Source: Psococerastis gibbosa
Lineage: Eukaryota > Arthropoda > Insecta > Psocodea > Psocidae
NCBI GenBank assembly: GCA_963971405.1
Contig: OZ020484.1
Span: 14,508,001-14,572,000 of the forward strand
Length of the DNA: 64,000 nt
Direction: 5' to 3'
The notes below the pieces were generated by a model. The model saw nothing but the letters and a program-made list of their open reading frames with translations. It made no database searches and was not told where the DNA came from. This document shows positions 2,921 through 62,834 of the stretch, piece after piece; the stretch's first letter is position 1, and each line of letters begins with the position of its first letter. Made by a program: the position numbers and the translations under genes.

Positions 2921-3181
2921 GGCGGCAATTCCACCGGCGAATTTACTTCATTTATGATTTTTTGTTTGTTTCGTTTTAAGGAGACTATTATGTAGATACT
3001 TAACTTATCTATTATAAATTAAGTTATAATATGGTAGAGACTTATTAATGATGTCTGCTACCATATTATAACTTAATTTACAGTAGATAAGTTAGGTATC
3101 TACATAATAGTCTCCTTAAAACAAAACAAACAAAGAATGTCAAATCACTATTGAAGTAAAACCGCCGGTGGAATTGCCACC
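2921..3181. mobile_element. PIF/Harbinger-like foldback MITE (GGCGG ends)
   Basis: Ends are GGCGGCAATTCCACCGGCG and its near-complement, flanked by TTA on both sides (2918-2920, 3182-3184). The two halves are inverted copies around a centre carrying the shared motif tgtctgctacca. A 3-bp TTA/TAA duplication is characteristic of PIF/Harbinger elements. A second copy lies at 30804-31074. Confidence 0.75.
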
Positions 3182-3240: not shown

Positions 3241-3571
3241 ATTAAAAAATTGATACTGATTGATACTAAACAAACTAGAAATATGAACAACAGGAAATAT
3301 AAACAAACAAAAAACGAAAGATGACTAAAACTGAAATCACTTCAAAAGTTCAAAAGAAATAAAAACGCGGGATATTGATATAGCCAACGTGTCTTTCTAG
3401 TTACACCCCCCCTCTCCCTCCCCCCTCCCCGTCGCAAATCTATAGCTACGGCCTTGCGGGCTATGTCTTGGACTCATGGACACCCATTCATTTTTGCTTT
3501 CCAATTTATACTATTAGGACTATTTAACTCTAGGACAATTTACGAAGGAACTATTACAGTACCTATCCTAA

Positions 3572-3711
3572 GGCGGGGTTTCCATTGACCTCGTTTTTGA
3601 ACGTGAGCGAGATATTGACGTGGTAGCAGACATTTTTAGACTGTCTTTAATGTCTGCTACCACGTCAATATCTCGCTCACGTTCAAAAACGAGGTCAATG
3701 GAAACCCCGCC
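3572..3711. mobile_element. Perfect 63-bp-arm foldback MITE
   Basis: Two 63-bp arms are exactly complementary around a 14-bp loop. Ends are GGCGGGGTTTCCA and its complement, and TAA flanks both sides (3569-3571, 3712-3714). The arm contains the core gacgtggtagcagacatt shared by the copies at 5599, 57693 and 59934. The complete arm match implies recent mobility or active homogenisation. PIF/Harbinger-like by target duplication. Confidence 0.85.
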
Positions 3712-3798
3712 TAATTGATGAATAGAAAAGCATGTACGGGTTGACTCGTACCGGTTCTTATAGAATTACGTAAGGTATCAATCTGTCCAATGTTTCTT

Positions 3799-5598: not shown

Positions 5599-5986
5599 GG
5601 CGGGGTTTCCTCTCATTGCAGAAAGCAAAGACATTGACGTGGTAGCAGACATTCAAGACTTAGGCGGGTATTCCACCGACCTCTCATTGCAGAATGCACA
5701 TGACATAGACGGAAATTTTTGTTTTATTCTATGTCATAGTTAAAATTGATCAATGGACACAGAGTAAAAAAACAAACAAACAAACTAAAATTAAAAAATG
5801 GCGTCATGGGATATGTTAAGTACAAACGTTTTAATAGATTTCTATAAATAAAAAAAATTCAAATTTCCGTCAATGTCATTTGCATTCTGCAATGAGAGGT
5901 CCGTGGAAACCCCACATAAGTCTTGAATGTCTGCTACCACGTCAATGTCTTTGTATTCTGCAATGAGAGGTCGGTGGAAACCCGCC
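5599..5986. mobile_element. Foldback MITE carrying a nested relative
   Basis: The outer ends are GGCGGGGTTTCC and GGAAACCCGCC. The arms (tctcattgcagaa.., attgacgtggtagcagac) are inverted complements. The two halves are separated by another GGCGG element at 5663-5916, placed exactly at the centre of the hairpin. Confidence 0.75.
5663..5916. mobile_element. Inner GGCGG MITE nested at hairpin centre
   Basis: It begins GGCGGGTATTCCACCGAC and ends GTGGAAACCCCACA, with TTA on the left and TAA on the right. About 55 bp at each end are inverted copies (ctctcattgcagaatgca..). The interior, with caaacaaacaaac, is unique sequence. A closely related inner element occupies the same position in the foldback at 59934-60317. 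Confidence 0.7.
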
Positions 5987-21455: not shown

Positions 21456-21617
21456 GGCGGGTATTCCACATACGTCAATCGTCAATGAAAAATTGAAAAA
21501 TGACGTTTCAGCAGACATTAAAGACATACTAAAAATTCTGCTACCACGTCAATTTACGTCATTGTTACGTCATTTTTCAATTTTTCATTGACAATTGACG
21601 TATGTGGAATACCCGCC
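21456..21617. mobile_element. Foldback MITE (GGCGGGTATTCCA ends)
   Basis: Ends GGCGGGTATTCCACATACG and complement. The arms include gtcaatgaaaaattgaaaaa, and the centre has the shared gcagacatt / ctgctaccacgtca motifs. The arm sequence differs entirely from the copies at 3572, 57693 and 59934. TAA lies on the right flank. Confidence 0.75.
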
Positions 21618-30692: not shown

Positions 30693-30803
30693 TATAAGTA
30701 GGTACGAGAAGTAAGATACGGAAAAATCAATTTAATAAAAAATTATTATAAATTATCCTACTATATATTTTTTTAGACATTTCCAAGACCTGACATATTT
30801 TTA

Positions 30804-31074
30804 GGTGGCAATTCCCCCGGCGAATTTACTTCATTTGTGATTTGAGATTTTTGTTTGTTTTGTTTTAAGGAGACTATAATGTAGATGCTTAACTTATCTA
30901 TTATAAATAAAGTTATAATACCTGTATGGTAGACTTATTAATGATGTCTGCTACCATATTATAACTTAACGTATAATACATATGTTAAGTATCTACATAA
31001 TAGTCTTCTTAACTGAAAACAAACAAAAAATCTCAAATCACAAATGAAGTAAATTCGCCGGTGGAGTTGCCGCC
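30804..31074. mobile_element. GGCGG foldback MITE (copy of 2921)
   Basis: Ends GGTGGCAATTCC and GGAGTTGCCGCC with TTA on both flanks (30801-30803, 31075-31077). The centre has gatgtctgctaccatattat. It has the same layout as 2921-3181. Confidence 0.8.
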
Positions 31075-31077
31075 TTA

Positions 31078-57692: not shown

Positions 57693-57822
57693 GGCGCTTA
57701 TTCCATCGACGTCAATAGTCAAAATAATGCTGATATTGACGTGGTAGCAGACATTTTTACACTGTCTTTAATGTCTGCTACCACGTCAAACACCGTCAAT
57801 AATCATTATTGGAATAACCGCC
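57693..57822. mobile_element. Foldback MITE (GGCGCTTATTCCA ends)
   Basis: Ends GGCGCTTATTCCATCGACG and AATAACCGCC, with TAT on both flanks (57690-57692, 57823-57825). The core gacgtggtagcagacat and complement are identical to the copy at 3572, while the outer arms are unrelated to it. Confidence 0.8.
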
Positions 57823-59933: not shown

Positions 59934-60317
59934 GGCGCCCATTCCATTGACCGGCTAGGGCTATTTCCAAAAACAGTGACGTGGTAGCAGACATTCAAGA
60001 CTTAGGTTGCGTTTCCATCGATCTCGCATTGCAGAATGCAAAGGACATTGACGGAAATTAGAATTTTTCTTTTTATAGAAATCTATTAAAATGTTTGTAC
60101 TTAACATATCCCATGACGCCATTTTTTAATTCTAGTTTGTTTGTTGGTGATTTTACTGTATGATCATTGATCAATTTTAACTATGGCATAGAGGAAAATA
60201 AACTTTTCCGTCAATTCTGCAATGCGTGGTCGGTGGAAACGCCACCTAAGTCTTGAATGTCTGCTACCACGTCACCGTTTTTGGAAATAGCCCTAGCCGG
60301 TCAATGGAATGGGCACC
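59934..60317. mobile_element. Foldback MITE carrying a nested relative (second case)
   Basis: Outer ends GGCGCCCATTCCATTGACCG and complement. Arms include gctagggctatttccaaaaa, then the core gacgtggtagcagacattca. The two halves are split at the hairpin centre by 60005-60246. It has the same architecture and break point as 5599-5986 with different outer arms. Confidence 0.8.
60005..60246. mobile_element. Inner MITE nested at hairpin centre (second case)
   Basis: It begins GGTTGCGTTTCCATCG and ends GTGGAAACGCCACC, flanked by TTA on the left and TAA on the right. The interior shares cttaacatatcccatgacgc with the complement of the inner element at 5663-5916. Both inner elements are joined to the same outer core, attcaagact / agtcttgaat. 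Confidence 0.75.
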
Positions 60318-62397: not shown

Positions 62398-62834
62398 GCC
62401 GGCTATTCCACTTGTCACTATTCTGTCATTTGTGCGTCAATAATTAATGCAATTTTTCTTTAACTCTATGTCATTGTCCATTTCAACTTCAGCACGTTAA
62501 AATTGATCAATTACCATGGAGTAAAATCACGCTTTGCAAACAATAACAAACTAAAATTAAACAATGGCGTCAACTAGAGATGTTAAATAATTTAAATTAA
62601 TTTCTTGTGAACGAACGAATTATTTCGTAATTTCAATCCTTAAATTTCTTGTAGATTATAAAATTAAAAGAAAAACGGCGGGCAAACTTACAAAATTGGA
62701 AAAAATTGAAAACAAAAATGATCAATTGTTGGAGACAAGTGGAATGAGGTGTAAAAATATAAATGCAACATTGATGATATTTCCGTCAGTGACATTGCCC
62801 AAAATGAAGAAAACTGACAAGTGGAATAGCCGCC
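62398..62834. mobile_element. 437-bp GGCGG-type MITE
   Basis: Left gccggctattccacttgtca, right gacaagtggaatagccgcc, and TAA on both flanks (62395-62397, 62835-62837). It is the best-preserved copy of the 31469/3799 subfamily, in inverse order. Confidence 0.8.

What the first reader, a model, noticed from the sequence alone, without database searches (positions are those of the whole stretch)
3572..3711. Foldback MITEs: fixed tips and core, unrelated but self-complementary arms
Copies at 3572-3711, 5599-5986 (outer), 21456-21617, 57693-57822 and 59934-60317 (outer) share the tips (GGCGG..TTCCA) and the central gacgtggtagcagacatt. Between tip and core, the arms are unrelated among copies, yet inside each copy the two arms are perfect or nearly perfect complements. 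Simple divergence from one ancestor would destroy the arm match. This suggests each copy acquired new arm sequence that was then mirrored, for example by hairpin-templated repair or replication of one arm from the other.
Basis: partly seen in the sequence, partly recalled or inferred. Interest (0 to 1): 0.72.

Follow-up and report, generated by a model that had tools for sequence, protein, structure and literature searches.

The report
Inherited hairpin mini-transposon subfamilies
These five hairpin-shaped repeats are copies of a very abundant family of small mobile DNA elements whose arm sequences are inherited within subfamilies rather than being newly made and mirrored in each copy; the repeats are mostly ordinary, with signs that arms are occasionally swapped or matched up when a new subfamily arises.

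Summary
The hairpins are real and mostly as described; one of the five (57693) has poorly matched arms. The 18-base core has about 46,600 matches in the 409-Mb host genome, so this is a family of roughly 23,000 short inverted-repeat elements. In subfamily A, source mismatches are inherited on a constant side. So arms are not replaced and mirrored copy by copy.

The idea survives at subfamily level. Some subfamily-defining sites changed on both arms together (A site 34: 27 of 27 concordant; C site 24: 38 of 38). One core sits between three arm groups, and one arm type occurs with two cores. This suggests rare arm exchange and arm-to-arm copying in founders. Three-base duplications (38 of 75 copies) point to PIF/Harbinger-type MITEs; no autonomous partner was identified. 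New member of a known kind.

The parts
3572..3711 (.). Short MITE, subfamily C (140 bp: arms 45 + core 18, loop 14); TSD TAA at 3569-3571 and 3712-3714
   Evidence: 39 further scored places 94-99% identical (three of them one locally duplicated insertion)
3617..3634 (+). core GACGTGGTAGCAGACATT, left arm of copy 3572
3649..3666 (-). core, right arm of copy 3572
5599..5986 (.). Long MITE, subfamily E (388 bp), carrying a nested hairpin; cores at 5636-5653 (+) and 5926-5943 (-)
   Evidence: 39 further scored copies 90-93% identical
5663..5916 (.). Nested inner hairpin of the E element: same kind of tip, E-like arms, second core (GACGGAAATT), flanked by CAAGACTTA / TAAGTCTTG
   Evidence: boundaries read by eye
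21456..21617 (.). Short MITE, subfamily D, unequal arms (46 and 67 nt from tip to core), cores with 3 and 2 mismatches
   Evidence: 39 further scored copies 97-99% identical, and 80-82% to the reverse strand
57693..57822 (.). Short MITE, subfamily F, right arm shortened to 35 nt; TSD TAT
   Evidence: 39 further scored copies 88-99% identical, most matching only up to query base 125 of 142
59934..60317 (.). Long MITE, subfamily A2 (384 bp); cores at 59978-59995 (+) and 60256-60273 (-)
   Evidence: 18,120 A-arm matches genome-wide
60005..60246 (.). Nested inner hairpin of the A2 element: alpha and beta arms differing by a fixed indel, second core GACGGAAATT
   Evidence: boundaries from core positions plus the 9-base flanks

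Best explanation
The five features are copies of one large family of non-autonomous inverted-repeat DNA elements (MITEs), about 23,000 copies, probably mobilised by PIF/Harbinger-type transposases of the host. Each copy is transposed whole with both arms, so the two arms of a copy match because both descend from a source element that was already largely palindromic and the copy has had little time to mutate; mutations after insertion hit one arm at a time. The family has split into several subfamilies. Within a lineage, arms have drifted while staying largely symmetric because one arm is occasionally copied from the other in source elements (replication template switching or gene conversion), which can also flip the interior. 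The core has been combined with at least three arm groups by exchange between elements. Shown here: family size, subfamily membership, one-arm mutation after insertion, inherited source mismatches, paired changes at some subfamily-diagnostic sites, three-base duplications. Inferred: the transposase, and template switching, conversion or exchange as the cause of paired changes and new arm-core combinations.
For: Core <=2 mismatches: 23,299 + 23,334 places, backward-read control 8 + 5. Whole-element relatives among 40 scored candidates per search, the window copy included: 3572, 39 others at 94-99%; 21456, 39 at 97-99%; 57693, 39 at 88-99%; 5599, 39 at 90-93%. Copy 59934 is A-type like 23 of 29 distinct elements in L001-L030, and A arms have 9,030 + 9,090 places. 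Private variants: C 40 single-arm, 0 both-arm in 38 copies; A 32 and 0 in 27 copies. Exact arms genome-wide: F 6 copies with both arms exact against 5.5 expected if arms mutate independently; C 5 against 2.2, P = 0.067. Source mismatches in A: site 42 mismatch on alpha in 8 of 8 A2 copies that have it and on beta in 7 of 7 A1 copies; tip site 3 C/T in 13 of 14 A2 copies, reversed in one. Paired diagnostic sites: A site 34 13 A/A, 14 C/C, 0 mixed; C site 24 7 A/A, 31 T/T, 0 mixed. Flanks: direct repeats of 3 bp in 38 of 75 copies, of 2 bp in 5, of 4-9 bp in none; TTA 17 and TAA 12 of the 38. At least 150 DDE_Tnp_4 matches, many with open frames.
Against: Five arm patterns account for 20,611 hits, 44% of the number of core hits, so many arms were not typed and an unusual subset could hide there. 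Variants present on both arms exceed independence: C 9 against 3.6 expected, A 38 against 22.0; most lie at diagnostic sites (7 of 9; 34 of 38), but one C copy at site 15, one at site 28, three A copies at site 38 and one at site 42 remain and could be arm copying. Within-copy distance is slightly below permuted distance even inside C (3.47 against 3.72 of 63 sites; 87 of 5000 permutations as low). In C, the T at site 28 is not on a constant side of the loop (4 and 4). Only 38 of 75 copies have identical 3-bp flanks; 14 are reversed and 23 other, a few of these through misplacement of a damaged tip by my rule. No autonomous element with these tips was seen.
Confidence: 0.86

Rival explanations
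1. One reading: each copy acquires a new arm, which is then mirrored by hairpin-templated repair or replication.
For: Perfect 64-nt arms in copy 3572; core shared by arms of three groups; both-arm variants somewhat above independence.
Against: All five window copies are in multi-copy subfamilies; 0 of 72 private variants mirrored, 95% upper limit 4.1%; the D subfamily and the relatives of 57693 have unequal or imperfect arms and amplified so (80-82% and about 75-80% to their reverse strands).
Confidence: 0.03
2. Founder-level version: a new arm was acquired once by a source element, mirrored once, and the symmetric element then amplified into a subfamily.
For: Same core with arm groups C/E, A and B/D/F; E-type arms occur with the GTGGTAGCAG core (418 places) and with the GACGGAAATT core (18,574 places); several diagnostic sites changed on both arms together; the inner hairpin has palindromic flanks CAAGACTTA / TAAGTCTTG.
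Against: No founder caught with one new and one old arm; the graded series C - L002 - L035 - E shows that much arm change was stepwise. Recombination between two elements followed by ordinary drift and correction also fits.
Confidence: 0.35
3. Selection by the transposase (needing matched ends) keeps arms symmetric, without any copying between arms.
For: Tip letters are shared across arm groups that are otherwise unrelated.
Against: Paired change at site 34, far from the tip, while mismatches at sites 42 and 28 propagate; subfamilies D and F amplified with unequal or imperfect arms.
Confidence: 0.12

Closest known systems
PIF/Harbinger (Tourist-like) MITEs such as mPing
   Same: Short, non-coding, inverted ends, 3-bp duplications mostly TTA/TAA, very high copy number; the host has at least 150 DDE_Tnp_4 matches. 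That the superfamily makes 3-bp duplications: start of the abstract of PMC2213677 in a search listing; the preference for TTA/TAA and GG-ends is recalled.
   Different: Arms that fill almost the whole short element; diverse arms around one core; about half of the copies lack identical 3-bp flanks; no autonomous partner shown.
CMITE of Acropora corals (PMC2872659; text parts 1-3 of 4 read)
   Same: Families with different terminal inverted repeats share a strongly conserved internal region; a composite element made by insertion is also described.
   Different: TTAA duplications and piggyBac-like ends; a 21-base piece of its conserved region is absent from the window with <=3 mismatches.
Galileo / Foldback elements of Drosophila (PMC3573991; passages read)
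   Same: Long inverted arms, 98-100% alike within a copy, subfamilies, chimeric copies; arm extension and exchange by recombination and conversion proposed.
   Different: P-superfamily transposase, 7-bp duplications, arms of hundreds of bases.
Template switching between inverted-repeat arms (PMC8604942, PMC8794818; abstracts and passages)
   Same: One arm copied from the other gives paired changes, and the spacer between arms can be inverted, as inferred here for A1 against A2 and perhaps for the loop in C.
   Different: Described in yeast coding sequences and in RNA genes, not in a MITE family.

Membership tests
PIF/Harbinger (Tourist-like) MITE | 3-bp target site duplication, mostly TWA | tested here: met
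   direct flank repeats of 3 bp in 38 of 75 copies, 2 bp in 5, 4-9 bp in 0; 29 of the 38 are TTA or TAA. Met for about half of the copies
PIF/Harbinger (Tourist-like) MITE | short element with inverted ends and high copy number | tested here: met
   130-388 bp in the window; 46,633 core hits genome-wide
PIF/Harbinger (Tourist-like) MITE | shared ends with an autonomous element encoding a DDE_Tnp_4 transposase | not testable with these tools
   150 DDE_Tnp_4 matches scored in the genome; the same search rang in 1 of 14 control genomes.
Foldback / Galileo | 7-bp (Galileo) or 9-bp (FB, recalled) duplications | tested here: not met
   no direct flank repeat of 4-9 bp in 75 copies
Foldback / Galileo | P-type transposase in the autonomous member | not tested
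   no search for P transposase was made
CMITE (coral piggyBac MITE) | TTAA duplications | tested here: not met
   no 4-bp direct flank repeat in 75 copies
CMITE (coral piggyBac MITE) | conserved internal region shared among families with different ends | tested here: met
   core shared by three arm groups, though with another sequence (window only)

The most novel reading that the evidence does not exclude
New MITE subfamilies are born by a two-step process: a core or an arm is exchanged on one side of a source hairpin, and template switching then mirrors the new arm onto the other side, giving at once a symmetric element with a new arm that can amplify; arms and cores thus behave as interchangeable modules.
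Probability: 0.3. Interest if true: 0.58.

Novelty: new member of a known kind. Interest (0 to 1): 0.3.

Why it matters
A family of tens of thousands of palindromic copies is good material for asking how such elements keep matched arms while their sequence changes. Source mismatches that are inherited on a known side are markers against which arm-to-arm copying can be counted. That process is described in yeast genes and RNA genes; in the listings of searches I saw no title or abstract start on measuring it in a MITE family. For the finding as given, the main value is negative: matched arms in single copies need no special repair.

Tried and rejected
Per-copy mirroring: rejected. Flank mirroring: if an arm were copied past its end into the duplication, TAA..TTA and TTA..TAA should be equally common; they are 11 and 2 (P = 0.022), so this does not fit well; a 2-bp TA duplication with one extra A/T on each end is a possible, untested alternative. 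Autonomous element: not reached. Host species: not determined; open frames of 130 codons or more in the window were listed but not searched further. A literature search needing all six terms gave nothing.

Rows dropped and sampling: L003 repeats L002's element and was left out; L004 and three further cores (in L020, L027, L035) had no facing partner and gave no element. 78 distinct elements were in hand; 3 (L002, L034 and one of two in L011) were left out of the TSD table by the tip rule, leaving 75. Of 40 C copies in hand 38 entered the C comparison; by arm length the two missing are L053 and L074. The site tables also count the 57693 copy, which is not a C element. L071, L079 and L080 share flanks on both sides and are one insertion duplicated locally, so the 38 C copies are not all independent. 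The C copies were chosen as closest to copy 3572 (39 of them), and L001-L030 as the first exact-core places on one contig, so neither is a random sample.

Full report
What was checked. The window lies in a 409-Mb genome of 68 contigs, by its size a eukaryote; the species was not determined. The five hairpins are at the stated places. Their core occurs ten times in the window with up to three mismatches, eight times exactly, against 0.01 expected. Four of the five have long inverted arms of 89-100% complementarity. The fifth, 57693-57822, has a left arm of 45 and a right arm of 35 bases that match poorly, so it does not fit the description.

Family size. The core with up to two mismatches has 23,299 forward and 23,334 reverse places, against 8 and 5 for the backward-read control. 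As nearly all elements in hand carry two cores facing each other, this is about 23,000 copies.

Are the arms private to each copy? No. Each search with a whole window copy scored 40 candidates, the window copy included. Copy 3572 has 39 others at 94-99% identity, 21456 has 39 at 97-99%, 57693 has 39 at 88-99%, most of them without its last 17 bases, and 5599 has 39 at 90-93%. They lie on many contigs, and the numbers are floors: 1,318, 1,173, 1,097 and 3,526 candidates were seen at first look. Copy 59934 belongs to the dominant type A, found in 23 of 29 distinct elements of L001-L030, with 18,120 arm hits genome-wide. Other arm types have 318 (C), 418 (E), 1,395 (B) and 360 hits (F). The five patterns sum to 20,611, or 44% of the number of core hits; the rest were not typed, and D was not counted this way.

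Do arms change together after insertion? Arm plus core were aligned in 38 of 40 C copies and in 27 A copies. Variants seen in one copy only are on a single arm in 72 cases and on both arms in none, an upper limit of 4.1%. In C there are 132 single-arm variants and 9 on both arms (3.6 expected), 7 of the 9 at one diagnostic site. In A there are 78 single-arm variants and 38 on both arms (22.0 expected), 34 of the 38 at three diagnostic sites, 3 at site 38 and 1 at site 42. Within-copy distance in C is 3.47 of 63 sites and with arms permuted among copies 3.72 (87 of 5000 permutations as low); in A it is 2.89 of 62 and 4.04 (2 of 5000), as two subfamilies would produce. Genome-wide, F has 6 copies with both arms exact and 5.5 expected under independence; C has 5 and 2.2, P = 0.067 (from places, taking copies as half the hits). 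The slight C excesses run against strict independence; mixed ages and the site-24 sublineage would also give them.

Inherited mismatches. Long A copies can be oriented by their interior, whose two inner arms (alpha, beta) differ by a fixed indel in all 27 copies. The tip difference (site 3, C on alpha and T on beta) holds in 13 of 14 A2 copies and is reversed in one. The site-42 mismatch is on alpha in all 8 A2 copies that have it and on beta in all 7 A1 copies that have it (counts read from its table). Source elements thus amplified with mismatched arms and descendants kept them. In C, the T at site 28 sits on one arm in 8 copies, four on each side of the loop, and on both arms in one; here the side is not constant, which recurrent mutation or loop inversion could explain.

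Changes between subfamilies. Here arms do change together: A1 and A2 differ at sites 14, 15 and 34. Site 34 is the same on both arms in 27 of 27 copies; site 14 is on both arms in 11 copies and on one in 2, site 15 on both in 10 and on one in 3. C site 24 is concordant in 38 of 38. In A2, three copies carry AACAACGGT on both arms, L017 has it on beta only and L026 on alpha only; transfer between arms or exchange between elements would explain this. The side of the site-42 mismatch is swapped between A1 and A2, as an inverted interior would give. Template switching between inverted-repeat arms is known to homogenise arms and invert spacers (PMC8604942, abstract and passages; PMC8794818, abstract and passages). 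This is the mechanism I favour for these rare events; it is inferred.

Modules. Excluding tips, arm types form three groups by alignment against shuffles: C, L002, L035, E and the inner arm of A; A1 and A2; B, D and F. Cross-group z-scores reach 3.5 (A1 against E), within-group links along the chains are mostly 5 or more, so the separation is clear but not absolute. The core is therefore shared by different arms. Conversely the E-type arm occurs with the main core (418 places) and with a second core GACGGAAATT (18,574 places). In 174 kb not chosen for content (window plus eleven 10-kb regions) a tip rule gave 12 hairpins, one of them nested in another and several without the core; the rule missed the 5599 and 57693 copies. 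The inner hairpin of long copies is usually flanked by CAAGACTTA and TAAGTCTTG, which are reverse complements, as an insertion at the centre of a palindromic loop with a 2-bp TA duplication would leave.

What kind of element. Of 75 copies, 38 have identical 3-bp flanks (TTA 17, TAA 12, others 9), 14 reversed (11 TAA..TTA, 2 TTA..TAA, 1 TGA..TCA) and 23 different. Direct flank repeats of 2 bp occur in 5 and of 4-9 bp in none. Over 151 ends, the flank reads T (0.84), A or T (0.93), A (0.86), with C favoured before it (0.44). This fits PIF/Harbinger (Tourist-like) MITEs. The genome has at least 150 DDE_Tnp_4 matches, several groups with open frames of 375, 382 or 384 codons; the same search rang in 1 of 14 control genomes. 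A link between these transposases and these ends was not shown.

Precedents. Coral CMITEs have different ends around a conserved interior (PMC2872659, text parts 1-3 of 4 read), the same puzzle in a different superfamily. Galileo copies have arms 98-100% alike within a copy, subfamilies, chimeras and proposed arm copying (PMC3573991, passages). The finding is therefore a new member of a known kind. I saw no paper measuring arm-to-arm copying in a MITE family in the listings of searches, which cover open-licence papers only and of which I opened four papers.

Noticed in passing
L051 (C1:13979959-13980184) and L064 (C13:7765192-7765416): Two subfamily-C copies share flanks on both sides (about 25 bases with gaps on one side, about 12 on the other) in opposite orientation, yet have opposite loop orientation and differ at site 24 on both arms. 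Either independent insertion at the same spot of a repeat, or one insertion whose interior was flipped and whose arms were replaced.
   Followed up: partly
75 copies: Reversed 3-bp flanks are skewed: TAA..TTA in 11 copies, TTA..TAA in 2 (P = 0.022); unexplained, perhaps an alternative 2-bp TA duplication.
   Followed up: partly
L071, L079, L080 (C1:2710042-2711272): Three subfamily-C copies with shared flanks within 1.2 kb, a local duplication of one insertion; L079 and L080 share variants that sit on one arm only.
   Followed up: partly
window 2921-3181, 30803-31075, 62398-62834; L040 6160-6430: Hairpins with the same kind of tip but without the core: further subfamilies with shared ends.
   Followed up: partly
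genome-wide, e.g. C1:13641828-13642322: 36 DDE_Tnp_4 matches share the score 127.2 bits, with open frames of 383-391 codons, which suggests a recently active PIF/Harbinger transposon.
   Followed up: no
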